Positions 16,386 through 41,214 of a stretch of DNA of 41,444 nt are shown in pieces. Position 1 is the stretch's first letter. Each line of letters starts with the position of its first letter. This DNA comes from Sterolibacterium sp. (GTDB taxonomy: Bacteria > Pseudomonadota > Gammaproteobacteria > Burkholderiales > Rhodocyclaceae). A program made the translations under genes and the position numbers. The DNA is taken from the NCBI GenBank assembly GCA_018062105.1, contig JAGOSV010000017.1, forward strand, positions 1 to 41,444, written 5' to 3'. The notes under the pieces were generated by a model. It was not told where the DNA came from. It did no database searches and saw only the letters and a program-made list of their open reading frames with translations.

Positions 16386-18437
16386 CTACAACGGCAACAC
16401 CCCGGCCTCAACCATCTGTCTTGCATCGCCCAGGGCGGCTTGTTCCAGCTGGCTGCGTTGCCTTGCCTGCGCCAGCAGGGTGTCACCTTCCATCAAACCG
16501 TGCGATTGACAGATCGGCAGCAGTTCATGAATGACCTGTTCACGCTGGGTCTGGAACTTCGTCAGCATGCGGATGGCTTTTTCGCGCTGGCCGGCAAGCC
16601 CGAGAAACATGGCACTTTCCAGCAGGTAATGCGCCATTTCCAGACTGTTGATGGCGGTATCGAAGCGGGTTCTTGAGACCACATTGGCATCCGCCAGATG
16701 CAGGAACGCCAGAATGAAGCCCCAGGGGCCGGGATCGTTGTGATGAAGGCGATTCTCTGCGCGCGCGGCCCAATCCTTCAACAGACGCATGGCCTGTGCT
16801 TCATGCGTGGCCCAGGCGCAGGCGGCCAGGGCACGCAACAGATAATCGGTACTCGCCTTGGATTGCACCGGCTTTTCGGTCGGAGTTCCTTGCAACAAGC
16901 GCAGGACTTCATCCGCCAGCCCGTCTGTTTCATCGCGGAGCCCGTCGTCTTTCCACAGTTCCCAGGCACAGTGATAAAGCAGTGCGGCCAGTTCGCGCTG
17001 ACCATCACCGGCTTTGGGTTGCCTGCGCTTTTTGCGTAACGCGTTGCACCCGCTGGTAATTTTCCCTTGCCGTGCAAACACTCGCGATTGCCAGTCCAGA
17101 CGCTTGAACTCGGCACTGCTTGACTCTTCAGCCGTCGGATAACGACAAAAACCATGCCGTTCGATCGCGCTGGCTGCGGCATCCGGCAGGTCCATGTCGA
17201 TCAACAGATTGGCCAGACTCCCCCAGAAAACGGCAGCTTGCGGCGTATCACTGTGCAGGGGTTTCAAACCCCTGGCCAGATGGCACGCCATTTCGGCATA
17301 GCGGCCAAACCGTCGCGCAGCACTGGCGAGGGCATGACAAGCCTGCGGGCTATCCGGCTCGATCAGTTTCTGCTGCAGCACGGCCATACGCTCATGGTCG
17401 TGTTTTTCGGCCAGCCAAAGTAGCTGCGGCCCCAGATGCTGACGGGTAATGTCCCAGGTTTGCGGTGCATCAAAGATCGCGCAGGCTTGTGCAAATGCCT
17501 CGGCACAGGTTTCGTCACCCAGTTCGGGAGCCGACCTGTGAGGACGGGCATCATGCGCGAGCGTCCAGCTCAGGTGATTCCAGACCGCAGAGGGCGAGCC
17601 ATCCAGATTCACCTCGCCACACAGGGACAGACTACGCGCATCACCTTCTGCCAGCGATGGACAAGTGGCCAGCCAGTGCGCCAGCTCGCCCTGTTTTTCC
17701 GGGAACTCCCGCCGCCATGTAGCCCAACTTCGGACGAAACTGCTCATCGCCGGTGCAGACAAATCGCCCCTGGCAACAACCACGGTGCGACAACCCTGCT
17801 GCAACAGATCGTCGGCCAGTCGGTGCATGGCCCCTTCCACGTTACAGGCGAGCAGCCAGACCCGCGCCGGCATGGGCTGCACACGGGGCAACTGAAAAGG
17901 CTGTCCAGCCTTGTCGTGCAAGCCATCAACGCGACCATGGGCCACGATGAACAGCTCTTCCAGTACCGGCAATTCCTTCGCCAAACCACTATGGCGGCAT
18001 GGCTTGAGCTGTCCACTTCTGAACTCCGCCTGCAATTCGCGCAGAAAATCGTATTCCGCTTCCGGAAACAAATTGAGCAGGCCGGCTGACTGTATTGATG
18101 ACAGGGATCGCGCAGACGGCAGAGGATCGCTCCAGGCCGCACGACGTACGATCAGGAATTGCTGGGCCAGCGGCTTGCCTGCCAGATGGAGCGTTTCCCA
18201 GGGCAGGCTCAGCCAATCCTCCGGCAGGGAAGACTCCAGCAGCAACAAGGGGCGCGATTGACCCGGCACACCGCATTGAGCAAGCTGCGGCAGGAATTCC
18301 TCAAGCCGCTGCACCTGCGGCGGCAGGGGCGGCAGGGGCAGTTGCAGATGCACCGACGGCGTCAGCAGATGCAGCGTGTTGCCGCATTCTCCGGAAACCG
18401 TATGGAGGGCAACGAAGTCCGCCCGGTTATCCATCAT
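16386..18437 (-). CDS. CHAT-domain protease with helical (TPR-like) C-terminus
   Basis: In this 683-aa protein, residues 60–265 look like a caspase-like CHAT domain. The entry segment is LPEDWLSLPWETLHLAGKPL, the catalytic His is in ELFIVAHGRVDG (His167), and the catalytic Cys is in ARVWLLACNVEGAMHRLAD (Cys198). QQGCRTVVVARGDLSAP follows. Residues from about 300 to the end are all-helical and Ala/Leu-rich with TPR-like periodicity (e.g. AVFWGSLANLLIDMDLPDAA). CHAT proteases cleave partner proteins when triggered. It is the last gene of a four-gene operon and overlaps the upstream gene by 4 nt (ATGA), so it is probably made in step with it. The upstream 401-aa protein and the sigma-like protein are the natural substrate or partner candidates (inference). 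The role could be defence, stress or programmed cell death. Confidence 0.75.
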   Translation of the reverse strand: MMDNRADFVALHTVSGECGNTLHLLTPSVHLQLPLPPLPPQVQRLEEFLPQLAQCGVPGQSRPLLLLESSLPEDWLSLPWETLHLAGKPLAQQFLIVRRAAWSDPLPSARSLSSIQSAGLLNLFPEAEYDFLRELQAEFRSGQLKPCRHSGLAKELPVLEELFIVAHGRVDGLHDKAGQPFQLPRVQPMPARVWLLACNVEGAMHRLADDLLQQGCRTVVVARGDLSAPAMSSFVRSWATWRREFPEKQGELAHWLATCPSLAEGDARSLSLCGEVNLDGSPSAVWNHLSWTLAHDARPHRSAPELGDETCAEAFAQACAIFDAPQTWDITRQHLGPQLLWLAEKHDHERMAVLQQKLIEPDSPQACHALASAARRFGRYAEMACHLARGLKPLHSDTPQAAVFWGSLANLLIDMDLPDAAASAIERHGFCRYPTAEESSSAEFKRLDWQSRVFARQGKITSGCNALRKKRRQPKAGDGQRELAALLYHCAWELWKDDGLRDETDGLADEVLRLLQGTPTEKPVQSKASTDYLLRALAACAWATHEAQAMRLLKDWAARAENRLHHNDPGPWGFILAFLHLADANVVSRTRFDTAINSLEMAHYLLESAMFLGLAGQREKAIRMLTKFQTQREQVIHELLPICQSHGLMEGDTLLAQARQRSQLEQAALGDARQMVEAGVLPL

Positions 18438-19639
18438 GGACGGGGATTCAGCTCCAGCCTCAGCGTCTGGCTGTCGGTAGCCGACAGCACCAATGCCGTG
18501 CTGCCCTCATCCCAGCTCAACAGCACCTTCTGACCCGGGGGCAGCGAATGGCTTTCTTCCACCAGTTCCCCACGCATGACCTGAACGGTAATGGCCTGCT
18601 GACCGATCGCGCTGACCTCCATGCGGCCATAGCGTTTAGCGTCGTAATCCTCCAGACGCAGGCGTGCCAGGTCTGGCCAGAGCAAATCCGGCACTTCGTC
18701 GCCGGATTCTGCCGACGTCGAATCGCGCATGGCCACGGCGACCTGCGGTTGCGGCCAAAGCTGCGCCAGTTGCCGCGCTGCACTATCCATCAGCTGACGC
18801 AGAAAACTGCCGCGCACACCCTGCGGTACAGTCGCCAGCGCACGCAAGGCCAGCCGCGCTGGTTCGCGCACGGCTTCGGCCGCCTCGAAATAGATGGACT
18901 GATAACGATGACGCGGGTCGTTCTTGCCACCCAGCGGGCTGCCGGTCACCACCTGCAAGCCTCCCAGAGTAGAACGCATCGCCACCCGCCCCGGCCAGGG
19001 TGCGATGTCGGTGGGGGCCTCCGTACTGACGAACTCCGCTGCCAGCGCACGAACCGCCTGCAGTGCGGCGGGAGGAAGTACCCCCACCACGCGGTTTGCC
19101 ATGGGCAGATAAATCCGCACCGGGTTCCAAAGCTGCACCATCCCAGCTTCCGGATCAAATTGCGCTTCATCCTCCTGCAAAACGGCATCCCACCAGCTTG
19201 CATAATCCGTCTCACCAGCAACCAGCCAGCCGTGCCAGAGGGTTTCTTCTTCAGCCGGCGCATCCAGCAGGACATGAAGAGGTGACGTCAGTACCGCATC
19301 CAGAGCCTCGGGCTGCGGTGTCACAATCTGCGTCACCCGCACAATCTGCCCGGCTGCCGGAGTTTTTTCCGCAGCCAGCGGCAGCGCAGCCACCCGCTGA
19401 CGGATCAACGCCTTCAAATGTGCTGGCATGGGCAGCGGCTCGGCTACGGCCTGCACTTCTGCTGCAGAAGAAGACTGCAAATCCTGATATCTCGCCCACT
19501 CGGGCGACTCGCGCACCGACGCTGCAATGGCCGCACTCGTCTGACCCCGTTCGACGGCCTGGATCAGACCCTCGGAAATACCAAGATGGCGTCGCTCGAT
19601 CTCCTCGAGGGCGGGGTGTAAAAAAATGGATGGTTTCAT
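18434..19639 (-). CDS. Unknown 401-aa protein between sigma-like and CHAT genes
   Basis: I do not recognise a family. The start is ATG 19639 (MKPSIFLHPALEEIERRHLG), which overlaps the upstream stop as ATGA; the longer frame extends into that gene. The N-terminal 90 residues are helical and resemble in size an anti-sigma interaction region. The central part contains two repeated Trp-rich stretches (LWHGWLVAGETDYASWWDAV, MVQLWNPVRIYLPMANRVVG). The C-terminus is beta-rich (YGRMEVSAIGQQAITVQVMR, VLLSWDEGSTALVLSATDSQ). No signal peptide or membrane span is visible. Position and coupling suggest it acts with the sigma-like and CHAT proteins, perhaps as an inhibitor or protease substrate. That is inference only. 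Confidence 0.6.
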   Translation of the reverse strand: MKPSIFLHPALEEIERRHLGISEGLIQAVERGQTSAAIAASVRESPEWARYQDLQSSSAAEVQAVAEPLPMPAHLKALIRQRVAALPLAAEKTPAAGQIVRVTQIVTPQPEALDAVLTSPLHVLLDAPAEEETLWHGWLVAGETDYASWWDAVLQEDEAQFDPEAGMVQLWNPVRIYLPMANRVVGVLPPAALQAVRALAAEFVSTEAPTDIAPWPGRVAMRSTLGGLQVVTGSPLGGKNDPRHRYQSIYFEAAEAVREPARLALRALATVPQGVRGSFLRQLMDSAARQLAQLWPQPQVAVAMRDSTSAESGDEVPDLLWPDLARLRLEDYDAKRYGRMEVSAIGQQAITVQVMRGELVEESHSLPPGQKVLLSWDEGSTALVLSATDSQTLRLELNPRP

Positions 19640-20412
19640 TGGAGGCACTCCTGTTGTTCTGCCCAAGTCAACGCCTCCAGACAGAGAATTTTCAAAATAC
19701 CGTGAATCACATGCACATTTTCCGGGAGAATCTCGACTCCCAGGGAGCGCACCCAGCGGCCCAGCAAGGTCCCATCAAAGCCCCGGTAATCCGGCTCGCG
19801 CCAGTTGAAGCCGAGCTGCTTCACCTTATAGGCATAAGACTTGATGCCATACTGCTGCGCGAGCGCACTCATCGGCACCGCCTGCTGCGCATCGGGGCAA
19901 TAAGAATACGCCACCGACAGACGCACCCAGTCCTCGCTCCCCTCTAGCCAGCGTCCCGCAGAAGCCGCCACCGCATCATGCTGCAGGCCCGATTCACGCA
20001 TGGCCTCATCGATCAGAGAAGACGAGGAAAGCAAGGACGCCCCCTGTTCGATGATGGAGGTTGCCTCGTCTTCCGCGCCATCACCACGATCCAGAAGATG
20101 CTCCGCCTGCTCGAAAGAGCCCCGTCGCGTCTGGGAATCCAGCTTGTCTTCCAGAAATCTCCGGTAGAAAAGAGACAATGCACCGGCATGGTGACACTGA
20201 CTGGCCAGATCAAAACGAAGAACCTTCTCGCTGAAATACTCATGGACGTAATCTTCATGTTCACCGGGCAGGCTCGCCAGTATCCTGGGTTTGTTCGCCT
20301 TCAACACACCGGTGACGATCTCGTAGAGGCGCGTCCATTCCGCCTCGTTCAATTCACTGCGCCGTGCCCACAGATCGCACAGCTGCGCATCGAGTTGTTG
20401 ATCAATTTTCAT
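19636..20412 (-). CDS. Sigma-70/ECF-like regulatory protein
   Basis: This 258-aa protein has residues 50–100 that resemble sigma region 2: EDYVHEYFSEKVLRFDLASQ followed by ALSLFYRRFLEDKLDSQTRR, the pattern of a region 2.1–2.4 helix ending in basic residues. Residues 180–215 form a possible helix-turn-helix (VPMSALAQQYGIKSYAYKVK, then QLGFNWREPDYRGFDGTLLG) where region 4 would lie. The similarity is distant and the protein is longer than a usual ECF factor. It sits 2 nt after the MazF-like gene and overlaps the next gene by 4 nt. A sigma factor coupled to a protease operon is the most interesting reading; a non-sigma helical DNA-binding protein is the main alternative. Confidence 0.5.
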   Translation of the reverse strand: MKIDQQLDAQLCDLWARRSELNEAEWTRLYEIVTGVLKANKPRILASLPGEHEDYVHEYFSEKVLRFDLASQCHHAGALSLFYRRFLEDKLDSQTRRGSFEQAEHLLDRGDGAEDEATSIIEQGASLLSSSSLIDEAMRESGLQHDAVAASAGRWLEGSEDWVRLSVAYSYCPDAQQAVPMSALAQQYGIKSYAYKVKQLGFNWREPDYRGFDGTLLGRWVRSLGVEILPENVHVIHGILKILCLEALTWAEQQECLQ

Positions 20413-20414
20413 AT

Positions 20415-20816
20415 TCAGTACCGTGACTTGAGCCAGTTGAGCAGCTCGATGCGATGCGGTTGAGCAATCATACCGATCGCTTTCTTCTGCAGCGATGCTG
20501 GATCAATGAGTTCATAGCGGTAATAGGCAAGACTGTGTGGCTTGTCCTTGACTTGATTTACCCAAGTCACTCGCTGCTTTTCATCCAGATCGAAGAATTC
20601 TGCCGAACCATGCTGATCACGGGTAGTGCAGGGCAATACCACCAAGCGTTCACCATGCCGTTTTATGGCCACAACCGGGCGCGATGGTTTGGGTAGCTTG
20701 CGGTTGCTGCCGAACATCAGTGCGCCTTGGGGACAAACGTAAACAAAGCCGTCGGCCACGCCGGCCTCTTTGACTGAATCGGGCAAATCGGGGGTCTTGT
20801 TGCCGGGTCTGAACAT
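20415..20816 (-). CDS. Small MazF/PemK-like protein heading the sigma/CHAT operon
   Basis: In this 133-aa protein the central RPVVAIKRHGERLVVLPCTT, followed by RDQHGSAEFFDLDE, resembles the beta-barrel core of MazF/PemK-type proteins. RVTWVNQVKDKPHSLAYYRY and a C-terminal helix come next. The resemblance is weak and the toxin catalytic residues cannot be verified. AAGGAG eight bases before ATG 20816 supports this start. It is the first gene of the four-gene minus-strand operon and is divergent from the 63-aa gene. It could be a toxin, or a binding module of the operon. Confidence 0.55.
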   Translation of the reverse strand: MFRPGNKTPDLPDSVKEAGVADGFVYVCPQGALMFGSNRKLPKPSRPVVAIKRHGERLVVLPCTTRDQHGSAEFFDLDEKQRVTWVNQVKDKPHSLAYYRYELIDPASLQKKAIGMIAQPHRIELLNWLKSRY

Positions 20817-21187: not shown

Positions 21188-22003
21188 TTACGACGCCAAT
21201 CCGCTACCGTGGCGACGGCCTTCCTCTGGCGGCGGCAAGAATGTCGCGGCATCCGGGTGACACTGGGCAAGGAAGACCATCATCTCGGTGGAGTCTTTCG
21301 AGAGATAGAAGCGAACCATCTTCTCGTTGAATTCCTGCACCTTCGCGGCGGGTACACTGATCGCGTCGATGCCGTGCGACATCAGTACCCCGTTCATCAT
21401 GAAACGTGACGTGCGCTTATTCCCGTCGAAGAAGAACTGCTGCAAGGCCCCAAACAGAAAGAAGGCAATGGCTTGCTCAAACGGTTCGCACTCCTGCAAG
21501 GCAGCCACACCCTCGCGGAACACCCGGTTCAACTCGGGCGCACCAGGCAGGGTCCGCCGCGGTGTATAGCGACCACATTCACCCAGCCCCACATCCGGCG
21601 TGTAATTTGTCTCCTGGCCTTCACCACGGAACACTCCCCATTCCAGAGCTTCCTTGCGAGCAACAATACCGTTCAGCTCCGTGAATACTGGCTTGGAGAG
21701 TTCAAACTGACTGCCCTTGACCATCGCCAACAGACGCTTGGAGCTTTCGGCCAGATTCAGGATTTGCTCCTGATCGGAAATCCGCCTTCCGCCGATCGTC
21801 ACGCCATCCAGCAGCGTTTTGACTTCCGGAAAAGTGAAGGGATTGCCCTCGAGCACTGAAGCGTCCCACACAAACTCCGGCAGCATCTTATGGAATCGGA
21901 AACAGACACGTTCCAACGAATGAGAAGGTACGGAAGTCGGTACTGCCGACCTGTCCCATCGGAATCCAAGCGCATCAAACAGAGTCACGTTGTCGCACCT
22001 CAT
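21188..22003 (-). CDS. Fic-domain protein with catalytic His replaced by Gln
   Basis: This 271-aa Fic-fold protein has an inhibitory-helix-like motif near the N-terminus (DASVLEGNPFTFPEV, resembling the S/T-x-x-x-E-G-N pattern) and then Fic helices. The active-site loop is QQFFFDGNKRTSRFMMNGVL, where the usual HxFxDGNxR has Gln in place of His. The rest of the loop (Phe, Asp-Gly-Asn, Arg) is kept. The C-terminus (GIDAISVPAAKVQEFNEKMV) is characteristic of a subgroup in which I recall the His being naturally absent. Fic enzymes usually transfer AMP to target proteins. Without His, either this activity is lost or another chemistry is used. It lies alone, opposite to its neighbours, in a cassette bounded by a 28-bp direct repeat. 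Confidence 0.82.
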   Translation of the reverse strand: MRCDNVTLFDALGFRWDRSAVPTSVPSHSLERVCFRFHKMLPEFVWDASVLEGNPFTFPEVKTLLDGVTIGGRRISDQEQILNLAESSKRLLAMVKGSQFELSKPVFTELNGIVARKEALEWGVFRGEGQETNYTPDVGLGECGRYTPRRTLPGAPELNRVFREGVAALQECEPFEQAIAFFLFGALQQFFFDGNKRTSRFMMNGVLMSHGIDAISVPAAKVQEFNEKMVRFYLSKDSTEMMVFLAQCHPDAATFLPPPEEGRRHGSGLAS

Positions 22004-23603: not shown

Positions 23604-24068
23604 ATGGCCTCTGTAAATAAAGTCATCCTGGTTGGCAATCTCGGCAAAGACCCGGAAATCCGCTACACCCAGTCGGGCGAGCCCATCGCCACCCTCGCCG
23701 TCGCCACCCGTGACCAATGGAAAGACAAGGCCAGCGGCGAAAAAAAGGAATCAACCGAATGGCACCGGGTCAGCCTGTTCCGCAAACAGGCCGAAATCGC
23801 CGAGCAGTACATGAAAAAAGGCAGCCAGATCTACATCGAAGGCTCACTCAAAACCCGAAAATGGCAAGACCGCAATGGCCAGGAACGCAGCACCACTGAA
23901 ATCGTGGCCAGCCATGTCACCCTCCTCGGCCGGCGACAGGACAACGCCGCTCCTGATGAGCCCATGCCTGCAGAACCCGCGCAATATGCAAACCCCGAGC
24001 CTTCCACTCACACAATCGATGAAGCCTCGGCTACTTCATGGCAGAACGACGAATATCCCCCGTTCTGA
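23604..24068 (+). CDS. ssb: Single-stranded DNA-binding protein
   Basis: In this 154-aa protein, residues 1–105 form the SSB OB-fold: [54 protein letters not shown] and [21 protein letters not shown] disordered linker and the acidic C-terminal tip DEYPPF follow, a variant of the usual DDIPF partner-binding tip. ATG 23604 is the start that begins the domain exactly. SSB binds single-stranded DNA as a tetramer and recruits repair and replication proteins. Lying just before a helicase gene, this may be an island copy rather than the chromosomal housekeeping copy. Confidence 0.95.
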
Positions 24069-24195
24069 ACCAGGATGGAGCGAACGCATCGCAGGCAACG
24101 CAACCCGCGCCAGCTTATGCAATACTCATGGCGATACTTATGGTTTTGTGTCAAACAACTACCAGGCGGATGCCTGCCCAAGGAATGCCCAAACC

Positions 24196-26349
24196 ATGTC
24201 GATGACGCTAACCGAAGAACAGAACCACGCACTGGAAGCCATCCGTGCCTTCATGCTGGACGAAACCCGTGATGCCTTCATCCTGCGAGGCAGCGCAGGT
24301 ACCGGCAAGACCACGCTGATTGCCCGCCTGGTCGATGCCCTCGAGGAAATGAACAAGACCTATGCTCTGCTGGCCCCCACTGGCCGGGCGGCGCGCATCT
24401 TGGGCAGCAAGATAAAAGGCAGAACCCCGGCAACCACAATCCACGCCTGCATTTATCTCCTGGATAAATTCATCGTCGTGGAAGAAGCATCAAGTGCCAA
24501 TGATCCCGGCATAAGAATGATCTTTCCGTGCAGAAAAGATGAATCTCTACTCTCCCTGTTGATCGTCGATGAATCCTCCATGGTCGGCGACAAGGAAATC
24601 CAGGGGGATGTCATCCGCTTTGGCAGCGGCAGGCTGCTGCATGACCTGATCCAGTATGCCCGTTCGAACCGCCCCGGCCACAACGAGGCCCCGCTGATCA
24701 AACTATTATTCGTCGGCGACCCGGCGCAGCTCCCCCCCATTGGCGAAAACGACTCGCCTGCGCTGTCTGACGACTATCTGAGCAAGACCTACGGTCTGCA
24801 GGTAGACAGTTTTGACCTCACCACCGTCATGCGTCAGGCCAAAGGCAACCACATTCTTGACCGCGCCACCGAGCTGCGCGGCACCCTGCTGAAAAACTGC
24901 TTCAACACCTTTTCACTGCAACCCTACGGACAGGACATCGAAAAAGTCACCCCCAACCAGGCCATCAGCCAGATCGTACAAAACCTGAAAGACCAACGGC
25001 AGCCCAGTGTCGCCATTGTGCATTCCAACAAAGCGGCACTGGAATACAACCGCAGCATCCGCGACCATCTATGGGGGGATGCCAACCTGCCGATACAGAT
25101 CGGCGATATCTTGCTGATCAATCGCAACAACCATGTCCAAGGCTTCAACAACGGAGACCTGGTCAGAGTGACAGCCGTTGCACAAACGCCAGAGCAGAGC
25201 TACGAAGCACTCAAAGGCCAGAAAGAACGGGTGCTGCTCTCCTTTCGCAAACTCACTGTGGCCTATCGCGAAGCCAATGGAGAAGTCACACGCAAACCCG
25301 TCCTGGTGCTGGAAAACCTGCTGAACTCACCCGAGCGCGAAATACAACCACTGGAACAACGTGCCCTGCTGGTTCATTTCCGCAAGCGGCACTCAGGACT
25401 CGATCCAAAATCCAACGAATTCCGCCAGACCATCAAGGACGACCCATACTTCAACGCGCTACAGGTCAAATACGGCTATGCCATGACCTGCCACAAGGCC
25501 CAGGGTGGAGAATGGGACACGGCCATCGTGGACTTTTCTTCCATGAGCGGCGGCCGGAACAACGAAAATTTCTTTCGCTGGGCCTATACCGCCATCACCC
25601 GCGCTTCCCGGTGCCTCATGGTCGTCAGCCCGCCGGAGTTCAGCCCGACCAGTGGCATCAACTGGAGCAACAGCAAGGGAAATGAACCGACGACTTCGGA
25701 CACACTCTCACCCCAACCTGCCCTTGAAGAATTACAGGCCGATGCAGACTGGCAACGCTACTACTTCACGCCGGAAATGGCCCCCCTCATGCACCTGCAC
25801 CAGCGACTGCGCAGCGTCTGGGGTATGCAAGACATTGCGGTGGAACAATTACAACACCTCCAATACTGCGAACGCTACACCTTGACGCGCCACGACTGCC
25901 GCGCTGTGGTGCAGTACTGGTACAACGGCAAATACAAGCCCAGCCGGGCAAACGCCGTACCAGGTGCCGGATTCGACCCCCAACTCGCCAATGACGCCTT
26001 GCTTTCCCTTCAGTCCCTCATCAACACCCCGGATGCAACACAGCCGACAAACGGTGCGCAATCCCCCCTGCAGAAGAGCCCGCCTGAAGACCCGTTCATA
26101 GCCGGCTTCCTGGCCCAGATCGATGCCGCGCTCACCGGCACAGGTATCCAGCGTACAGCGCACAAATCCATGCCCTACCGTCTGCGTGTGCAACTCGCCG
26201 ATGCAACTCGACGCGCAGAGATCGACTTCTCCTACAACGGCAAGCAGCAATGGACTTCGGCACTGGAAGTCGGCGGGCTGGGCAGCAGCCGCGGGCTGCT
26301 CGAAGAAATCAAGCATCGGATGGACGGACAAGGAGATCAGCCGCAATGA
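24196..26349 (+). CDS. RecD-like superfamily 1 ATP-dependent DNA helicase
   Basis: This protein has 717 aa from ATG 24196 (MSMTLTEEQNHALEAIRAF). Motif I is RGSAGTGKTT (31–40), motif Ia is LLAPTGRAARIL, motif II is LLIVDESSMV, motif III is LLFVGDPAQLPPIG, and the late motifs are YGYAMTCHKAQGGEWDTAIV and FFRWAYTAITRASRCLMVV. This is the RecD/TraA/Pif1-like 1B layout with a UvrD-C2 end. A C-terminal extension of about 190 residues has no recognised helicase motif. The longer frame is rejected because it runs antisense-like through the ssb 3' end. It overlaps the TPR/OB-like gene by 4 nt (ATGA), so the two are a functional pair. A role in DNA repair or phage defence is inference. Confidence 0.88.
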   Translation: MSMTLTEEQNHALEAIRAFMLDETRDAFILRGSAGTGKTTLIARLVDALEEMNKTYALLAPTGRAARILGSKIKGRTPATTIHACIYLLDKFIVVEEASSANDPGIRMIFPCRKDESLLSLLIVDESSMVGDKEIQGDVIRFGSGRLLHDLIQYARSNRPGHNEAPLIKLLFVGDPAQLPPIGENDSPALSDDYLSKTYGLQVDSFDLTTVMRQAKGNHILDRATELRGTLLKNCFNTFSLQPYGQDIEKVTPNQAISQIVQNLKDQRQPSVAIVHSNKAALEYNRSIRDHLWGDANLPIQIGDILLINRNNHVQGFNNGDLVRVTAVAQTPEQSYEALKGQKERVLLSFRKLTVAYREANGEVTRKPVLVLENLLNSPEREIQPLEQRALLVHFRKRHSGLDPKSNEFRQTIKDDPYFNALQVKYGYAMTCHKAQGGEWDTAIVDFSSMSGGRNNENFFRWAYTAITRASRCLMVVSPPEFSPTSGINWSNSKGNEPTTSDTLSPQPALEELQADADWQRYYFTPEMAPLMHLHQRLRSVWGMQDIAVEQLQHLQYCERYTLTRHDCRAVVQYWYNGKYKPSRANAVPGAGFDPQLANDALLSLQSLINTPDATQPTNGAQSPLQKSPPEDPFIAGFLAQIDAALTGTGIQRTAHKSMPYRLRVQLADATRRAEIDFSYNGKQQWTSALEVGGLGSSRGLLEEIKHRMDGQGDQPQ

Positions 26350-28719: not shown

Positions 28720-29031
28720 ATGGACGACGCCACCCAAGGAATCCCCCCTTCGCCCAGCACCCGCCCCCTGCTGGTCAGTTACGACATCTCCGACGACAAG
28801 CGGCGCAACCGTCTGCACCGGCTGCTCAGTGCCTATGGCGAGCCCATGCACGAATCCGTCTTTCTCTGCTGGCTCAATCCGCAACAACAACAACGACTAC
28901 AAATCGAGCTAGACCACTTTTCCGCCAAAGAACACCCCGGCGAAGAACGTATTGCCTGCATCGAAGCCCGCCCAACCGGCCCCCTGGCCAATGCCAACGG
29001 CCAGACCACAGAAGACTGGATAATCTCATGA
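28720..29031 (+). CDS. cas2: CRISPR-associated endonuclease Cas2
   Basis: This 103-aa protein has a short extra N-terminus (about 14 residues) before the ferredoxin-like fold: RPLLVSYDISDDKRRNRLHR with the Asp at beta-1 (Asp22), then AYGEPMHESVFLCWLNPQQQ. It forms a complex with Cas1 during spacer integration. The gene overlaps cas1 by 4 nt (ATGA), so the two are coupled. The order cas2–cas1 is less common than cas1–cas2. Confidence 0.92.
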   Translation: MDDATQGIPPSPSTRPLLVSYDISDDKRRNRLHRLLSAYGEPMHESVFLCWLNPQQQQRLQIELDHFSAKEHPGEERIACIEARPTGPLANANGQTTEDWIIS

Positions 29032-29999
29032 CCCAATGCCTCTATATCGACCGGCACGGCACCCGCATCGGCCATGTCCACGGCCGCCTGACCCTCCAGG
29101 CACCCGAAGGCGAAGAACAAAGCCTGCCCAGTGCCCAGATCGAACAGATCATCATCCTCGGCCAGACCCATTTCACCCACACCGCCATCAGCGGGCTGCT
29201 CAAATCCGGCATCCCGGTCATCTTCTCCAGCCACCACGGCGGCTACCGGGGCAGCCTCACAAGCAGCGGCGGCTACCAGATCCAGCGGCGCATCGCCCAA
29301 TACGACGCCATGCGGCAAAGTGCGGACTGCGTCCTGCTCGCCCGCGAACTCATCAAAGCCAAGCTGCGAGGCCATGCCCGGCTACTGCAACGCTGGAACC
29401 TCCAGCCCGCCAAAGAAATTCTCACCGCCCTGATGGCCTGCCGCCACTGCGACGAACTCAATGCCTTACGCGGCTACGAAGGGCTGGGCGCGCGCGGGTT
29501 TTTCGCCGGGCTAAGAACACACTTGGCCGACAGCCCATTCCCCTTCCAGGAAAGACGCCGTCGGCCACCGCCAGACCCCGCCAACGCCCTGCTCTCCCTT
29601 GGCTACACCCTGCTAGGCAACGAAATCGAAGTCGGCCTGCAAGCCTGCGGGCTGGACCCGGCGGGCGGCTTTCTCCATCCACCAGAAAACGGCCGTCCCA
29701 CGCTCATCATGGACCTGGTCGAACCCATGCGCCCCCTGGTTGACCGATTCTGCGCCCGACTGCTTCGCAACGAACTCAGCCCCGAAGATTTCGAACAGCA
29801 AGTCGAACGCTGCCAGCTCAGAGACGGCCAGCGCGGCAAAGTCTATCGCGCCTGGGAAACCCTGCTGGACAGCCAAACCCGCTGGCGCGGAGAGAGTACC
29901 ACCTGGCGGCGGCTCATACACCTCCAACCCCGCGAACTCGCCCGCTGGCTGGACGGACAAATTCAACAGCCCCGCTTCTGGTATCTTGACGCACCCTGA
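29028..29999 (+). CDS. cas1: CRISPR-associated integrase Cas1
   Basis: This 323-aa protein has the N-terminal beta domain TQCLYIDRHGTRIGHVHGRL, PSAQIEQIIILGQ and GIPVIFSSHHGGYRGSL. The helical catalytic domain carries the expected metal ligands: Glu151 (NALRGYEGLGARGFF), His217 (GGFLHPPENGRP) and Asp229/Glu232 (LIMDLVEPMRPL). It integrates prespacers at the leader–repeat boundary. A leader copy and degenerate repeat directly follow it. No reverse transcriptase is fused, so acquisition from DNA is expected. Confidence 0.97.
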   Translation: MTQCLYIDRHGTRIGHVHGRLTLQAPEGEEQSLPSAQIEQIIILGQTHFTHTAISGLLKSGIPVIFSSHHGGYRGSLTSSGGYQIQRRIAQYDAMRQSADCVLLARELIKAKLRGHARLLQRWNLQPAKEILTALMACRHCDELNALRGYEGLGARGFFAGLRTHLADSPFPFQERRRRPPPDPANALLSLGYTLLGNEIEVGLQACGLDPAGGFLHPPENGRPTLIMDLVEPMRPLVDRFCARLLRNELSPEDFEQQVERCQLRDGQRGKVYRAWETLLDSQTRWRGESTTWRRLIHLQPRELARWLDGQIQQPRFWYLDAP

Positions 30000-30043
30000 G
30001 AAAAGAATGCTAAACTGCCCCGCACGCTGTAGAAGCACCATGT

Positions 30044-30228
30044 TCTTTGACAATCAAGCCGTTAGCAGCAAAACCTCGAAAGAAGGTTATCGCCGCAAAC
30101 CCATGCTGTTGATTCATTGGCAGAAAATTTTTTCTGTCCATGCCGCTCGGATATCCGGAGCTTTTTGTCACCCCCTTTGCCGTCCACGCCTTCCCAGCCC
30201 TTATCCCACAAGGCTTCCCAAGGCCAGA
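30044..30228 (+). promoter_or_regulatory. CRISPR leader, duplicated copy (A)
   Basis: About 185 bp, close to identical to the leader at 41029–41214. It shares TTGACA (30047–30052), AAACCTCGAAAGAAGG, TTGATTCATTGGCAGAAAAT and the last 90 bases up to the repeat. The -10 position reads CAAAAC here against TAAAAC in the other copy, so this promoter may be weaker. It lies just after cas1 and in front of a degenerate repeat. Confidence 0.82.
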
Positions 30229-30266
30229 GTCCGGACGGCCCGCCCGCTGATAGGGGCTTTGTGCAC
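30229..30266 (+). CRISPR. Vestigial first repeat of a decayed array
   Basis: This 38-bp sequence matches the active 36-bp repeat for the first 26 bases, then has one extra G and an extra C (GGGGCTTTGTGCAC against GGGCTTTGTGAC). It follows leader copy A at exactly the position of a first repeat. No regular repeat–spacer succession follows; the next 120 bp (30267–30384) look like remnants of a mobile element (GGGGTCAGGTCTTGCAATCA). Confidence 0.8.
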
Positions 30267-30384
30267 GGGGTCAGGTCTTGCAATCACGCAACCCAAGCAA
30301 GAGGCGGCAGAACGCTTGCACATCAAGCTACGACTATGCTCGGACGTAAGACTGACCCGTTTTATGCAGTATTGAGTCTTTCGC

Positions 30385-30503
30385 GTCATTGCGGGCTCGA
30401 CCCGCAATCTTTCGCACGCAGCTCGCAATCTTTCGTCCGTGGGTTGTAGGGGCGAAACATCTTTCGCCCAGGGTTGGAGATTGCGGGTCAAGCCCGCAAT
30501 GAC
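30385..30503. repeat. REPIN-like element (two inverted REP sequences)
   Basis: The 26-bp left arm (GTCATTGCGGGCTCGACCCG...) and right arm (30478–30503) are inverted copies with one mismatch. Each arm is itself a GC-rich palindrome. The interior carries another hairpin (GGGCGAAA/TTTCGCCC). This is the REPIN plan, spread by REP-associated Y1 transposases, none of which is in the window. A lone partial REP lies at 31579–31594. Confidence 0.78.
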
Positions 30504-30520
30504 AAGGCATGGTGGTCGGG

Positions 30521-30556
30521 GGCCAGGCAGCCCGCCCGCTGATGAGGCTTGTGGTC
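30521..30556 (+). CRISPR. Second degenerate repeat of the decayed array
   Basis: Aligned with the 36-bp repeat, 26 of 36 positions match, including an uninterrupted CCCGCCCGCTGAT core. It lies 255 bp after the first vestigial repeat in the same orientation. The REPIN element falls between them, which suggests an array broken by repeat insertion. Confidence 0.5.
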
Positions 30557-30609
30557 GCAAAGGCGGGCTTGCCTGTACAGACAGGCGCATTTGCGGCAAG
30601 CCTGGGTTT

Positions 30610-31406
<797 letters not shown>

Positions 31407-31496
31407 TCACTTCCATTTCATCCGTTGAACGGGTTGAGTATAGCAATCCACACTCCGTAGCGACAACGTCATTACGCACCCCTCTAATGAAACGGG

Positions 31497-31574
31497 AATG
31501 AAACGGGGACAGACCACGGCTTTTATCCCCTACCTCTTCCGAAGCCACCTGCATTGAGCGCAGCGTTTAGTCTT
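31497..31574 (+). repeat. 78-bp direct repeat, copy 1
   Basis: Starts AATGAAACGGGGACAGACCA and ends in GAGCGCAGCG plus TTTAGTCTT. It matches 32521–32598 with a few substitutions and single-base gaps. The GGGACAGACCACG core is a type of sequence seen near Y1-transposase elements. The two copies bracket the DinJ-like and HicAB genes. Confidence 0.82.
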
Positions 31575-31812
31575 TCGCGTCATTGCGGGCTCGATGTGCG
31601 CAAGCAATCTCATCGGCCTCGGCCATCGCTGTGCGCGTTTCCGCATTCGGCACACGCAGCGCGAACGGCAGTTCCTTGTCGGCGACGACACGGGCCAGGA
31701 ACACGCGGACCGCTTCGGAGACGGTCAGACCCATCGAGGCCAGCGTTTCCGCAGCCCGCACCTTGACATTCTCGTCCACGCGGACATGAACCATGGTAGT
31801 GGCAGCAGCCAT
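31567..31812 (-). CDS. Orphan RelB/DinJ-family antitoxin, C-terminus replaced by REP
   Basis: This 81-aa protein has the ribbon-helix-helix part MVHVRVDENVKVRAAETLAS, MGLTVSEAVRVFLARVV and LPFALRVPNAETRTAMAEAD, typical of DinJ. The usual C-terminus and the downstream YafQ/RelE toxin are missing. The last residues (IACAHRARNDAKD) are encoded by a REP-like sequence (31579–31594) and by the 78-bp repeat end. The gene is probably a truncated remnant of a toxin–antitoxin pair. ATG 31812 begins the domain. Confidence 0.75.
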   Translation of the reverse strand: MAAATTMVHVRVDENVKVRAAETLASMGLTVSEAVRVFLARVVADKELPFALRVPNAETRTAMAEADEIACAHRARNDAKD

Positions 31813-31893
31813 GACGGCCTCCTGTTGCGATTGATTGAGATACTTTGATGCCGTCCGGGTGCAATCGCAAAGCGGCACAGGGCAGTCGCGACT

Positions 31894-32283
31894 TCAGCCT
31901 TCCCGCATTTCCCGTTCGGCTGCTTTGGCGAGAAATCCGGAACGGCTTAGGTGGTGGGCCTTGGCATAGTTGTCGATACGGGCCACCAGGTGTCCAGGCA
32001 AAGAAATGTTGAGACGCACGGGCTGGTTACGAATCCTGGTCAGGTCGATTTCGACCAGCATCCAATACCCCCCTTTGAAGCGCTCATCAGTGATCCAGTT
32101 TTCCGGTGCCGACGGAGTGGGTATCTCGATATCCTCGCCCTCAAAATGCACCTCAACCGCCTCTTGAGCCATGCGAGGCAGATCGGCCAGATCGTCCGCT
32201 GCCGAAAAGCAACCGGGAAAGTCAGGAAACGTCATTCCGTAAGCACTGCCTTCGTCCTTGTGCACATAGACCGGGTACAACAT
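31894..32283 (-). CDS. hicB: HicB antitoxin
   Basis: This antitoxin has about 129 aa. The N-terminal HicB fold is YPVYVHKDEGSAYGMTFPDF and PGCFSAADDLADLPRMAQEA. The C-terminal ribbon-helix-helix (VRLNISLPGHLVARIDNYAK, AHHLSRSGFLAKAAEREM) binds DNA. ATG 32283 is preferred because GGAGGTG lies five bases before it; a GTG at 32289 is the alternative. It is coupled to hicA with a 2-nt gap, toxin first. Confidence 0.93.
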   Translation of the reverse strand: MLYPVYVHKDEGSAYGMTFPDFPGCFSAADDLADLPRMAQEAVEVHFEGEDIEIPTPSAPENWITDERFKGGYWMLVEIDLTRIRNQPVRLNISLPGHLVARIDNYAKAHHLSRSGFLAKAAEREMREG

Positions 32284-32285
32284 AG

Positions 32286-32474
32286 TCACCTCCAGTTCCA
32301 GCCGGCTTGACGGTAGATGTTGCGCAGCGTACCGATAGCCATATCTTTGCGCGGGTGCGGCACCACCACATGGCCGGGATAGACAGGATGCTTGAATTTC
32401 AAGTGGCCACCTTTGCCACCCACATGCTGCCAGCCCTCGGATTCCAGTCGTTTAATGATATCCGCACTTTTCAT
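32286..32474 (-). CDS. hicA: HicA mRNA interferase toxin
   Basis: This 62-aa protein has the double-stranded-RNA-binding-like fold of HicA: MKSADIIKRLESEGWQHVGG, KGGHLKFKHPVYPGHVVVPH (catalytic His in GGHLKF), then PRKDMAIGTLRNIYRQAGW. ATG 32474 is chosen; the longer frame adds an unusual MVCIVTQ. It cleaves mRNA when free of HicB. It lies immediately inside the second 78-bp repeat. Confidence 0.93.
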   Translation of the reverse strand: MKSADIIKRLESEGWQHVGGKGGHLKFKHPVYPGHVVVPHPRKDMAIGTLRNIYRQAGWNWR

Positions 32475-32520
32475 TTGTGTAACTATACACACCATGATTG
32501 GCCCGTCAATAAGACCAAAG

Positions 32521-32598
32521 AATGAAACGGGGCCAGACCACGGCTTTTATCCCCTGCTACTTCCGAAGCTCACCTGCATTGAGCGCAGCGTTAGTCTT
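32521..32598 (+). repeat. 78-bp direct repeat, copy 2
   Basis: Second copy of the sequence at 31497–31574, same orientation. The 125 bp that follow (32599–32723) show no gene and should hold the cas6 promoter. Confidence 0.82.
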
Positions 32599-32723
32599 CC
32601 GACATCCTGCGTCTGCTGTGCATTCATTCACGCGGACTGGCATATTGGTATGGTATGTTTCGACATTCTTCGATGTCATTCAAGCCGTTTTGAAAATCAC
32701 GGAACTTCCGGCGTTGACCGGGC

Positions 32724-33668
32724 ATGATGTTTCTTCACGACAAGCCGATGCCCCCCTCCTCTCCACACTGCTCCCCGCACCGCTGGCATGGTCTTGAGCT
32801 GCATGGCCTGACCCTGCATTTCGCCGGTGCGACGGGTCGGGCTTCGTCGCGCGGCTTTCCTGGGGAAATCTGGCGCGGTCTGCTGGGGCAAGCACTTTCC
32901 CGGGCGGTCTGTTCCTATCCCCATGCCAACTGTCACAACTGCGTTCTGCTTTCGGGGTGCGCCTATCCTGCCCTGTTCAAACCGCTGGATGCCACCCGCC
33001 TGCCGCCCTTCTGGCCACATGGCTGGCAGGCAGCCGACCGGGGCTGGCATGTCGGCTTGCGCTGGCTGGGCAAGCAGGATTACGCCCTCTCGCAATGGCT
33101 ATCCGCCCTCGCCCGCCCATCCACCCGCGGAGAAAAATCGACGGAGCAGCACTTTCTGGGCGCCCCCGTCCGGCTCGAAAAGGCCAGCCATGCCCTGACC
33201 GGCGAAACACTCTGGACCCCCCATCGACAGTGGCAAAACCTCCCGCAACCCTTGCCACTGCCAGCCCCGCTGCCGGAAGAAGCCGCCACCCAGGGTTGCC
33301 GCGTCCGCTTCCTCACACCGCTAGTCAGCAAACATGAGGGCGACCCGCTTTACGGTGCTTTGCATACCCGTGTACAACGTCTGGTGCAGGCCCATGGCGA
33401 TGGCCAGACCTTGTCACGCCCTGACCGCCCCTGGCAATGCCGGGTGCTCGGGCAACAGCCGCTGAAAAAACAACTCGCTCGCCGCCCGCTGCAAGGCACG
33501 CTGTGGGAAGTCGCGCTCACCGACATCGCCCCCGAAGCCCTGACCCTACTGACTGTCGGGCAAGAACTGCACGCCGGCGGGCAAACCACTTCCGGTTGCG
33601 GTCAATACCAACTGCTTCCCCTGGCCGCGACCACGGAGAAAACCGGCACGACATCGACATCGTATTGA
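32724..33668 (+). CDS. cas6: CRISPR pre-crRNA endoribonuclease Cas6
   Basis: This 314-aa RAMP-fold protein belongs to the Cas6 branch with an N-terminal Cys cluster: GFPGEIWRGLLGQALSRAVC, then CHNCVLLSGCAYPALFKP (Cys63, 70, 73, 79). The C-terminal glycine-rich loop lies in GQELHAGGQTTSGCGQYQLL near residue 290. It is expected to cut the repeat transcript into crRNAs for the type III complex. The exact start is unsure: ATG 32724, its neighbour 32727, or 32748. It lies upstream of the effector operon but is separated from it by a MITE-like insertion. Confidence 0.82.
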   Translation: MMFLHDKPMPPSSPHCSPHRWHGLELHGLTLHFAGATGRASSRGFPGEIWRGLLGQALSRAVCSYPHANCHNCVLLSGCAYPALFKPLDATRLPPFWPHGWQAADRGWHVGLRWLGKQDYALSQWLSALARPSTRGEKSTEQHFLGAPVRLEKASHALTGETLWTPHRQWQNLPQPLPLPAPLPEEAATQGCRVRFLTPLVSKHEGDPLYGALHTRVQRLVQAHGDGQTLSRPDRPWQCRVLGQQPLKKQLARRPLQGTLWEVALTDIAPEALTLLTVGQELHAGGQTTSGCGQYQLLPLAATTEKTGTTSTSY

Positions 33669-33692
33669 CATGACAAACAGAATTTTTGTTAA

Positions 33693-33802
33693 GAAAACAC
33701 TGAGTTATTCCGTTCGCCCTGAGCTTGTCGAAGGGCACTACCTTTACAAACAAGGGCTTCGACAGGCTCAGCCCGAACGGATCTGATTTAATCAGCGTCT
33801 CC
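33693..33802. repeat. MITE-like palindromic repeat, copy 2 (110 bp)
   Basis: Inverted copy of the element at 2155–2264, same length, with matching terminal inverted repeats (right end inward GGAGACGCTGATTAAATCAG). It lies in the 186-bp gap between cas6 and cmr1 and may affect their co-transcription. Confidence 0.82.
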
Positions 33803-33854
33803 TTAAAAACCCCACTCACCCCAATACCCGACCTGATACAGGGAGCCACTTGAA

Positions 33855-34916
33855 ATGAACGCACCCGTGACACTGGAACAGCTACAGCACCCCGACAAAC
33901 AAGGATTACGCCTGCGTCTGCGTACCCTGACCCCGCTCTACACCGGCGGCATCGGCCAGCAGGGTGAGCAGCTTCACCCCTCCAATCTGCTCGGTGGCTT
34001 GCGCCACATGAGTTGCATGGTCGCCCGCACGCTTGGCGTGGCTGATTTTGAAAGCCAGGTCTGGGGGACAACAGGCCAGGCCAAACAGATCGGGCTGCAC
34101 TGGGACACCCGCCAGCTCAAGCCCGTTTCCCTGCCCGACAAGATCGACCTGCCCCGCAGACCCGATGGCAAACAGTCCCGCTGGTATTTCAACACGGCGC
34201 ATGTAGGCGAGCTGGGCCTGAGCCTCACCCGCCGCGGCATCAGCGATCTGCACTGGCAAATTCTACGGATCGCCCTGGCCATCCAGATCCGCCACGGCAG
34301 CTTTGGTTCCAAGGACCAATTCGGCCTGGGTGTGCTGGAACGGGTAGAGGGCCAATCTTTTGCCACACCGCTGGATGTCAATGCCCAATGGGAAAAAGCC
34401 AACCTTGACGAAGCCTCCGGCAAGCTCAACCTCTTGCGCACCTGCTTCATCAAGGTCGGCTTCCGCCACGCCCCGGGCGGGCCAAGGCAACAAAAACTCG
34501 ACCGGACCACCGCGCTCAAACTCGGCCTGGCCACCCGCGCCACCCTGCGCAACGCCCTGCGTGCCAGGGATAGCGACCCGCAAGCCGAAAAAGACCGGCT
34601 GACGCTCCTTCGCCACCGCATGCTGGGCGAGCTGAACAAGCACGGCAGTGCCATCAACGTCTCTGCCGCCTATGGCGAGGATGATGCCCCTGAACTGCGT
34701 ATTGCCATCCTGCTCAAGTCGGAAGGACGGGACGCGGAAAAGGATAAAGATGAGCGCAATGAGATCATAAAAAGACTGGTAAACAGCCTTGGGCAGGTCA
34801 ATGATCTGATCGACACCACCGGCTACAAATACGACAAAAGCGAACGGGAATACGGCGGCACTCACGCCAAGGACAAGGCCGCCTGGCTCAACACACTGGC
34901 AGGAGTCGCTCCATGA
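33855..34916 (+). CDS. cmr1: Type III RAMP protein, Cmr1-like (Cas7 group)
   Basis: This protein has 353 aa. The first RAMP strand and loop (LRLRTLTPLYTGGIGQQGEQ, then LHPSNLLGGLRHMSCMVAR) is the Cmr1 signature (TPxxxGG followed by R/S-x-x-GxLRW-like). GSFGSKDQFGLGVLERVEGQ at about 150–170 is the glycine-rich loop. A second, charged half ends in a basic, coil-rich region (RDAEKDKDERNEIIKRLVNS). Cmr1 caps the effector complex and helps capture target RNA. GGGAG lies eight bases before ATG 33855. It overlaps cmr6 by 4 nt (ATGA) and leads the effector operon. Confidence 0.82.
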   Translation: MNAPVTLEQLQHPDKQGLRLRLRTLTPLYTGGIGQQGEQLHPSNLLGGLRHMSCMVARTLGVADFESQVWGTTGQAKQIGLHWDTRQLKPVSLPDKIDLPRRPDGKQSRWYFNTAHVGELGLSLTRRGISDLHWQILRIALAIQIRHGSFGSKDQFGLGVLERVEGQSFATPLDVNAQWEKANLDEASGKLNLLRTCFIKVGFRHAPGGPRQQKLDRTTALKLGLATRATLRNALRARDSDPQAEKDRLTLLRHRMLGELNKHGSAINVSAAYGEDDAPELRIAILLKSEGRDAEKDKDERNEIIKRLVNSLGQVNDLIDTTGYKYDKSEREYGGTHAKDKAAWLNTLAGVAP

Positions 34917-39782: not shown

Positions 39783-39792
39783 GGAACCCGCC

Positions 39793-40970: not shown

Positions 40971-41028
40971 ACAACCGCCGCACACTTTGCAAAAATCACC
41001 CCCCGGCCAGCCGCAAAATGGCCATTGC

Positions 41029-41214
41029 TCTTTGACAATCAGGAAGATACCGGTAAAACCTCGAAAGAAGGTTATCGCCGCAAACCCATGCCGTTGATTC
41101 ATTGGCAGAAAATTTTTTTCAGTCCATGCCGTTCGGATATCCGGAGCTTTTTGTCACCCCCTTTGCCGTCCACGCCTTCCCAGCCCTTGTCCCACAAGGC
41201 TTCCCAAGGCCAGA
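41029..41214 (+). promoter_or_regulatory. CRISPR leader of the active array (B)
   Basis: This AT-richer segment directly precedes the first repeat. TTGACA (41032–41037) with a 16-bp spacer to TAAAAC (41054–41059) is a likely sigma-70 promoter for the array. The segment from AAACCTCGAAAG to CAAGGCCAGA is almost identical to copy A at 30044–30228. The runs of T at 41110–41118 could serve as a protein-binding or bending site for integration. Confidence 0.82.

What the first reader, a model, noticed from the sequence alone, without database searches (positions are those of the whole stretch)
16386..20816. Four-gene operon coupling a sigma-like protein, an unknown protein and a CHAT protease
The sigma-like gene, the 401-aa gene and the CHAT gene are joined by ATGA overlaps, and the MazF-like gene ends 2 nt before the sigma-like gene, so all four are likely co-regulated. 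The parts list (protease with helical repeats, sigma-like factor, unknown middle protein) recalls the type III-E Craspase output, where a TPR-CHAT protease cuts a protein that holds a sigma factor. Here it stands free of any gRAMP. It could be a self-contained protease-to-transcription switch that is not yet described.
Basis: partly seen in the sequence, partly recalled or inferred. Interest (0 to 1): 0.8.

Follow-up and report, generated by a model that had tools for sequence, protein, structure and literature searches.

The report
Protease-controlled sigma-like gene switch
Four tightly packed bacterial genes, conserved in several distant relatives, probably form a switch in which a caspase-like protease frees a gene-activating protein from its inhibitor; a sister form of the same gene pair appears anchored in the membrane and is often paired with an exported caspase.

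Summary
The operon is real: MazF-like, sigma-like ("sig"), 401-aa partner ("mid") and CHAT-like genes lie head to tail (2-nt gap, then two ATGA overlaps). None is recognised by Pfam, NCBIfam, PADLOC or PHROGs. Sig, whole or in part, lies directly upstream of mid in 13 of the 14 mid loci found; the last contig begins inside mid. Five loci, window included, carry the CHAT-like gene after mid; a sixth contig ends there. New here: in a sister clade of 8 mid loci mid has a predicted membrane helix, and 5 carry a Peptidase_C14 caspase with an export-like N-terminus. Partner topology and protease location thus differ together, across one split of the tree. I read this as a sigma/anti-sigma-type pair controlled by a caspase-clan protease, in an envelope and a cytoplasmic form (the window). 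Shown: operon, conservation, co-variation. Inferred: sigma function (sub-threshold profile evidence, controls mixed), anti-sigma role, cleavage. Craspase homology is not supported; a like mechanism is possible. The CHAT label rests on motifs, and the MazF label is unsupported. The operon borders a defence island with type III cas genes.

The parts
20415..20816 (-). First gene, 'MazF-like', 133 aa; role unknown
   Evidence: ORF; homologue in the same place in L027 (E 1.9e-31); an in-frame remnant resembling its C-terminus precedes sig in Ca. Accumulibacter aalborgensis (read by eye). No match in Pfam, NCBIfam and PADLOC that supports the name, none in PHROGs; one PDB chain at E 0.86, unrelated
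19636..20412 (-). sig: 258-aa sigma-like protein
   Evidence: ORF; 16-member family alignment with invariant W15, R18, L21, S192, L200-G201, T215, G218, W220; sub-threshold sigma models in other family members
20119..20259 (-). sigma-region-2-like stretch of sig (residues 52-98)
   Evidence: Aligned in register with ECF sigma region 2 by hhalign; score not significant by itself, and a reversed profile scored as high
19804..19974 (-). sigma-region-4-like helix-turn-helix stretch of sig (residues 147-203)
   Evidence: hhalign alignment to region 4 of six sigmas, score 29.6 against 19.4 for the reversed profile; family motif SYHYKAKKLGIT
19678..19779 (-). Conserved C-terminal extension of sig (residues 212-245)
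   Evidence: T215, G218, W220, L243 invariant
18434..19639 (-). mid: 401-aa partner, proposed anti-sigma and protease substrate; soluble in this form
   Evidence: ORF; 10-member alignment; no membrane-like segment
18863..19357 (-). Conserved core of mid (residues 95-259), shared by soluble and membrane forms
   Evidence: of 27 invariant columns all but L7 and P72 lie here
18452..18688 (-). Beta-sandwich, probably Ig-like, at the C-terminus of mid (residues 318-396)
   Evidence: Only part of the model with block pLDDT above 70: 76-91 over residues 321-390; weak Foldseek matches, none at E<=0.001, best 2.2e-3, designed immunoglobulin folds from 4.7e-3
16386..18437 (-). CHAT-like protease, 683 aa
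   Evidence: ORF; relatives in L026, L028, L029, L030
17523..18437 (-). CHAT-like domain (residues 1-305)
   Evidence: W80-E81, H167 and C198 invariant in 5 of 5; the CHAT label rests on recalled motif order; Pfam CHAT does not score
17937..17939 (-). Codon of His167, proposed catalytic
   Evidence: Sequence and invariance
17844..17846 (-). Codon of Cys198, proposed catalytic
   Evidence: Sequence and invariance
16386..17522 (-). Helical-repeat part of the CHAT-like protein (residues 306-683)
   Evidence: Family profile matches designed-repeat and TPR-type chains at E 0.0018 to 0.43

Best explanation
A self-contained proteolytic transcription switch. Sig is a highly divergent sigma-70-family protein (regions 2 and 4 plus a family-specific C-terminal tail). 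Mid binds and silences it like an anti-sigma factor, using the N-terminal and core parts shared by all mid proteins. A caspase-clan protease encoded next to mid cleaves mid's variable C-terminal part when triggered, releasing sig to redirect RNA polymerase. Two forms exist. In the envelope form mid has one membrane helix and an exported Peptidase_C14 caspase is often encoded beside it. In the cytoplasmic form (the window) mid is soluble with an Ig-like C-terminal domain, and the protease is a cytoplasmic CHAT-like enzyme whose helical repeats would receive the signal. Shown: operon, conservation, co-variation of mid topology with protease type, invariant His/Cys. Inferred: sigma activity, mid-sig binding, cleavage, signal, target genes.
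For: Sig, whole or in part, lies immediately upstream of mid in 13 of 14 loci that hold mid; 5 of the 13 are partial (contig edge in L020, L021, L026, L029; internal deletion in L028). In the 14th, L030, the contig begins inside mid. The CHAT-like gene follows mid in 5 of 6 soluble loci (window, L026, L028, L029, L030); L027 ends after mid. Five of the 8 membrane-type loci have a Peptidase_C14 caspase downstream on the same strand (E 1.6e-8 to 7.1e-36) with GH and D[A/T]C residues; with the starts I chose, all 5 begin with a hydrophobic stretch and 4 of 5 overlap mid by 1-13 nt. The CHAT-like profile finds nothing in the 8 membrane-type loci. Mid tree: CHAT-linked rows lie on one side of a 100/100 branch. 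Membrane-like segment in 8 of 8 sister-clade mids, 0 of 6 in the CHAT clade. Prodomain-like PF22148 in 3 of 10 mids, best E 4.4e-7. Sigma: of 3 NCBIfam families hit at E<=10 by 16 sig members two are sigma models (PRK12512 0.0041 in 1 member, TIGR02937 best 0.1 in 2). hhalign against 6 sigmas of the window's genome scores 29.6; 100 of 100 block shuffles score lower (max 24.9), as does the reversed profile (19.4).
Against: No sigma hit for the window's own protein in Pfam or NCBIfam. The best NCBIfam match of the sig family is not a sigma model but aroma_sacti_dom (0.0013, 2 members). AlphaFold model of sig poor (mean pLDDT 56.6), no sigma in Foldseek. Against 15 ECF sigmas the reversed sig profile scored as high as the real one (23.4 versus 22.3). 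The rank enrichment of sigma factors (AUC 0.78) was reached by 11 of 60 shuffled profiles, so it does not count. Pfam CHAT does not score on any of 5 proteins at E<=0.1, and a CHAT model built here ranks them 25th to 134th of 309. Three membrane-type loci (2 in G177, 1 in G491) have no caspase in the stretch held; L022's caspase gene lies 3.2 kb from mid. The co-variation rests on one split in the mid tree. Charge bias around the helix is weak, so the N-inside orientation is unproven. Seven sig loci have no mid, so sig can do without it.
Confidence: 0.5

Rival explanations
1. Defence effector module: the CHAT-like protease is itself the killing effector (alone or with the MazF-like protein) and sig/mid only sense infection and switch the operon on; mid is not a protease substrate.
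For: Patchy distribution: mid in 8 of 398 genomes including the window's own, none in 3 same-genus genomes. Neighbouring defence genes: TOTE/PDC-M16 helicase and type III cas genes. Decayed copy in Ca. A. aalborgensis.
Against: The defence island is seen only at the window; I recognised no cas genes by eye among the ORFs listed around the relatives, without a profile search. PADLOC has no model for the four genes. The membrane-type sister loci look like envelope signalling.
Confidence: 0.25
2. Sig is not a sigma factor but another helical adaptor or DNA-binding protein; sig, mid and protease form a signalling complex without an RNA-polymerase step.
For: No sigma match in Pfam and none below E 0.004 in NCBIfam for any member; best NCBIfam match is a non-sigma family; poor model with no sigma match; reversed control against 15 ECF sigmas and shuffle control of the rank test equalled the real profile.
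Against: Two of three NCBIfam families reached by the family are sigma models; collinear region 2 and region 4 alignment; score against the window genome's own sigmas above 100 of 100 shuffles and above the reversed profile.
Confidence: 0.2
3. Coincidental operon of unrelated genes kept together by chance or shared mobility.
For: The families are small and patchy.
Against: Sig-mid adjacency in 13 of 14 loci, a protease gene after mid in 10 of 14, reading frames kept while sequences fell to 24-57% identity with the window's.
Confidence: 0.03

Closest known systems
Type III-E CRISPR Craspase output (Csx29 - Csx30 - CASP-sigma)
   Same: A caspase-clan CHAT protease with helical repeats encoded with a sigma factor and an intermediate protein that binds and inhibits the sigma and is cleaved (passages of PMC10028731)
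   Different: No gRAMP/Cas7-11 or guide seen here; CHAT domain first and repeats second (reverse of Csx29); no significant sequence match to PDB chains of that system; sister form is in the envelope
CalpL/CalpT/CalpS of type III CRISPR
   Same: Protease, anti-sigma substrate and ECF sigma acting together (passages of PMC11417357)
   Different: Protease there is Lon with a SAVED sensor for cA4; neither was recognised in the four proteins
ECF54 sigma group with CHAT, subtilase or carboxypeptidase genes nearby
   Same: Sigma gene near a CHAT-domain gene, proposed proteolytic control (passage of PMC8999054)
   Different: That proposal concerns control without an anti-sigma factor; here a dedicated partner gene stands between sig and protease, and sig is not recognised by sigma models above threshold
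EACC2/caspase conflict systems with an ECF sigma gene
   Same: Caspase, repeat proteins and ECF sigma in one neighbourhood (passages of PMC8195603)
   Different: No Pfam domain of those systems was seen in the four proteins; EACC2 may have no model there
RseA/DegS-type membrane anti-sigma control (recalled; also named in passages of PMC10028731)
   Same: Membrane partner with an exported protease in the sister form
   Different: Protease is Peptidase_C14, not DegS; partner has no known anti-sigma domain; window form is soluble

Membership tests
Sigma-70 / ECF sigma factor | Thresholded match to sigma region 2 and region 4 models | tested here: not met
   None in Pfam or NCBIfam for the window protein; sub-threshold matches in other members only
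Sigma-70 / ECF sigma factor | Sigma fold | tested here: inconclusive
   Model mean pLDDT 56.6 from 3 sequences; Foldseek without sigma hits; profile-profile evidence mixed
Sigma-70 / ECF sigma factor | Binds core RNA polymerase and promoters | not testable with these tools
   Needs an experiment
CHAT protease (PF12770) | Catalytic His and Cys in order | tested here: met
   H167 and C198 invariant in 5 of 5; that they are the catalytic pair is inferred
CHAT protease (PF12770) | Match to the CHAT profile | tested here: not met
   No Pfam CHAT match at E<=0.1 in 5 members; CHAT model built here from 28 domains does not rank them high
Type III-E Craspase | gRAMP/Cas7-11 gene next to the protease | tested here: not met
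   Largest ORF printed for the window is 973 aa, against well over 1,000 aa for gRAMP (recalled); no gRAMP profile was searched; cas proteins given to PADLOC match Cmr/III-C models
Type III-E Craspase | Homology to Csx29, Csx30 or CASP-sigma | tested here: not met
   No such chain among matches in profile searches of PDB sequences
Anti-sigma factor | Gene directly downstream of and coupled to the sigma gene | tested here: met
   13 of 14 loci, taking sig as the sigma; the 14th contig begins inside mid
Anti-sigma factor | Known anti-sigma domain, or membrane anchoring in the family | tested here: inconclusive
   No known anti-sigma domain in 10 mids; membrane-like segment in 8 of 14 mids, none in the window's clade
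Anti-sigma factor | Binds and inhibits the sigma | not testable with these tools
   Needs an experiment
MazF/PemK toxin | Profile or sequence match | tested here: not met
   No MazF or PemK match in Pfam, NCBIfam, PADLOC, PHROGs or PDB sequences

The most novel reading that the evidence does not exclude
A previously unnamed family of caspase-clan-controlled transcription switches in which one sigma/anti-sigma-type pair is wired either to an exported caspase through a membrane partner or to a cytoplasmic CHAT-like protease through a soluble partner. That would make caspase-type proteolysis of a sigma inhibitor a general bacterial signalling mode, of which the CRISPR-linked Craspase is a special case or a parallel invention.
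Probability: 0.4. Interest if true: 0.78.

Novelty: new variant of a known kind. Interest (0 to 1): 0.6.

Why it matters
The natural substrates of most bacterial caspase and CHAT proteases are, to my knowledge (recalled), unknown. Here the protease gene follows one conserved partner gene in 10 of 14 loci, so a likely substrate is named and the test is direct. If right, it would extend the Craspase and Calp logic (a protease frees a sigma factor) beyond CRISPR and into the cell envelope. It also gives a natural experiment: partner topology and protease location differ together between two clades.

Tried and rejected
Rank enrichment of sigma factors by the sig profile looked strong (AUC 0.78, P 4e-6) but failed its control: 11 of 60 shuffled profiles did as well and the reversed profile gave 0.72. 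It is not used as evidence.

The matching test for CHAT (AUC 0.74) is confounded by protein length, had no shuffle control and is not used; a CHAT model built from 28 domains did not rank the family high.

AlphaFold models of sig (3 sequences) and mid (6 sequences) were poor except for the C-terminus of mid; Foldseek gave no sigma match and only weak beta-sandwich matches for mid.

No relative of mid was found in viral contigs by the two peptide patterns, nor in plasmids by tblastn. A shared upstream word of 8-14 bases was looked for in the 200 nt before the MazF-like gene of the window and of L027: none.

A weak resemblance of sig's C-terminal tail to a caspase small subunit (E 1.1 and 1.7) is below significance.

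In one search, 15 of the 30 fetched sigma loci passed my length filter. The six-sigma set came from the window's own genome. The first search for mid near the solo sig loci used a thinned ORF list that dropped real mids, so it was repeated on 415 ORFs of at least 80 aa. Caspase start codons were chosen by me among in-frame starts for an export-like N-terminus (in L035 it is the first start of the ORF), so the overlap lengths and the export reading depend on that choice.

Literature: searches returned no paper that I could see describing this gene set; for most papers only the listing and the start of the abstract were seen, and passages for PMC8195603, PMC8999054, PMC10028731 and PMC11417357. 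The primary ECF classification paper is not held.
Full report
Observation. The four minus-strand ORFs and their junctions are as described: MazF-like 20415-20816, sig 19636-20412, mid 18434-19639, CHAT-like 16386-18437, with a 2-nt gap and two 4-nt ATGA overlaps. Pfam and NCBIfam give only matches below their cut-offs, PADLOC none at E<=1 and PHROGs none at E<=0.1 for any of the four. PDB sequence searches with sig, mid and the MazF-like protein give nothing relevant.

Distribution. Counts include the window's own genome. Sig: 3 of 150 genomes and, with a profile, 4 of 300 of the order. Mid: 8 of 398 relatives, 3 of 399 of the order, 2 of 398 of the phylum (the other one, G578, is also). None of the three same-genus genomes G001-G003 has a match to sig or mid. 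The genome-contig scan with mid gave five loci: Ca. Accumulibacter vicinus (L026), Ca. A. aalborgensis (L028), Hydrogenophilus thiooxidans (L029), and two MAG contigs labelled Alphaproteobacteria (L027) and Acidobacteria (L030), whose mids are near-identical. That makes 14 mid loci with the eight below.

CHAT form. The CHAT-like gene follows mid in 5 of 6 loci of this clade: window, L026, L028, L029, L030; in L027 the contig ends after mid. L027 also keeps the MazF-like gene (E 1.9e-31) and the 4-nt sig/mid overlap. L026 begins about 100 nt before mid and there holds the C-terminal end of sig, again with an ATGA junction. In L029 only a C-terminal fragment of sig is left at the contig edge, with a stop codon seven codons from the edge, and a gap of 65 nt to mid. 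The A. aalborgensis copy is decayed: sig lost its C-terminal part in what looks like a deletion running into mid, mid is frame-broken, and the CHAT-like ORF stops early. His167 and Cys198 are invariant in all five CHAT-like proteins, as are W80-E81. The CHAT label rests on this motif order, which I recognise from memory; the Pfam CHAT model does not score on any of the five at E<=0.1 and a CHAT model built here ranks them low. The C-terminal part weakly matches helical repeat proteins of TPR type.

Envelope form. The values nearly touch (1.49 against 1.44), so the consistent position matters more than the number. Three of 10 mids match a fervidolysin-type prodomain (the call does not say which three; the window is not one). 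Five of the eight loci have a Peptidase_C14 caspase on the same strand downstream with GH and D[A/T]C residues. With the start codons that I chose, all five have a hydrophobic N-terminus, and the gene overlaps mid in 4 of 5 (13 nt in L024 and L025, 1 nt in L023, 4 nt in L035); in L022 it lies 3.2 kb further on, after a CHASE2 protein. The two G177 loci and the G491 locus hold no caspase-like ORF: a profile of the five caspases found nothing better than E 0.57 among their 111 ORFs, but the stretches held are only 7.7-9.6 kb. No CHAT-like relative was found in the eight loci. In the mid tree the five CHAT-linked rows lie on one side of a branch with 100/100 support, with L027 among them. Membrane helix plus exported caspase on one side, no helix plus a CHAT-like protein without a hydrophobic N-terminus on the other, is what is expected if mid and protease must share a compartment. 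It is one evolutionary split, so it counts once.

Is sig a sigma factor? For: of three NCBIfam families reached at E<=10 by 16 sig members, two are sigma models (PRK12512 at 0.0041 in one member; TIGR02937 at best 0.1 in two), though the best match is a third, non-sigma family (aroma_sacti_dom, 0.0013). hhalign puts sig in register with regions 2 and 4 of 15 ECF sigmas; that score (22.3) is above 100 of 100 block shuffles at each of two block sizes but below the reversed profile (23.4). Against six sigmas of the window's genome it scores 29.6, with a shuffle maximum of 24.9 in 100 and 19.4 for the reversed profile. Against: no sigma match in Pfam for any member and no sigma match at all for the window protein; poor AlphaFold model and no sigma in Foldseek; the rank-enrichment result was shown by its own control to be uninformative. 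I hold sigma identity at about 0.65-0.7.

Mechanism. Sig and mid behave genetically as a pair seen from mid: sig, whole or partial, stands directly upstream in 13 of 14 mid loci, and the 14th contig begins inside mid. Seen from sig the link is looser: seven sig loci hold no mid-like and no caspase-like ORF among 415. Mid occurs in a membrane version in the sister clade, and a caspase-clan protease gene follows it in 10 of 14. The simplest reading is that mid is an anti-sigma-type inhibitor and the substrate of the adjacent protease. The variable C-terminal domain (Ig-like in the window; prodomain-like in some relatives) would be the part recognised or cut. What activates the CHAT-like enzyme, which genes sig controls, and what the MazF-like protein does are open.

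Comparison. It would work like the Craspase output (Csx29, Csx30, CASP-sigma; passages of PMC10028731) and CalpL/T/S (passages of PMC11417357), but is not shown to belong to either: no gRAMP-sized gene, no SAVED or Lon recognised, no sequence relation found, reversed domain order. ECF54 sigmas with CHAT genes nearby (passage of PMC8999054) and caspase/EACC2 loci with ECF sigma genes (passages of PMC8195603) show that sigma and caspase-type genes have been linked in print; I saw no description of this gene set in searches.

Context. The operon borders a defence island: a Fic-like gene (Pfam Fic just under its cut-off), a TOTE/PDC-M16 helicase, Cas1, Cas6, Cmr1, a Cas10 matching III-C models best, Cmr4, Cmr3 and three CRISPR-like repeats. 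I recognised no cas genes by eye in the fetched flanks of the relatives, without a profile search, so a functional link to CRISPR is not shown. In G578 the sig-mid-caspase set lies among genes that I recognise by eye as type VI secretion.

Noticed in passing
window 29028-41444: Type III-B/C CRISPR locus: Cas1, Cas6, Cmr1, Cas10 (III-C models best), Cmr4, Cmr3, and three 41-nt CRISPR-like repeats at 41215-41410.
   Followed up: partly
window 23875-26349: Helicase with two matched stretches of the TOTE TATA-binding-like domain, matching candidate defence family PDC-M16A at E 2e-283.
   Followed up: no
window 21188-22003: Fic-like protein just under the Pfam cut-off, matching phrog_11900 at E 1e-45.
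   Followed up: no
L004-L007, L049-L051: Sig homologues without mid or caspase in 7 loci, five on Caballeronia or Paraburkholderia plasmids; next to TOMM genes (L004), a histidine kinase and a response regulator (L007; by eye L049, L050), or genes that look like type VI secretion (L051).
   Followed up: partly
L035 7017-10945: Sig, membrane mid and an exported caspase inside what looks by eye like a type VI secretion gene cluster.
   Followed up: partly
window 19678-19779 (sig residues 212-245): C-terminal tail of the sig family twice gives a caspase small subunit (3sip_B) in PDB profile searches, at E 1.1 and 1.7; probably chance.
   Followed up: no
L036, L037, L038 (window's genome): Three ordinary CHAT proteins elsewhere in the same genome; the one in L037 is followed by a protein that looks by eye like a CHASE2-adenylate cyclase.
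   Followed up: no
L008 9973-13352: Decaying copy of the operon in Ca. Accumulibacter aalborgensis, with deletion, broken frame and truncated CHAT-like ORF.
   Followed up: partly
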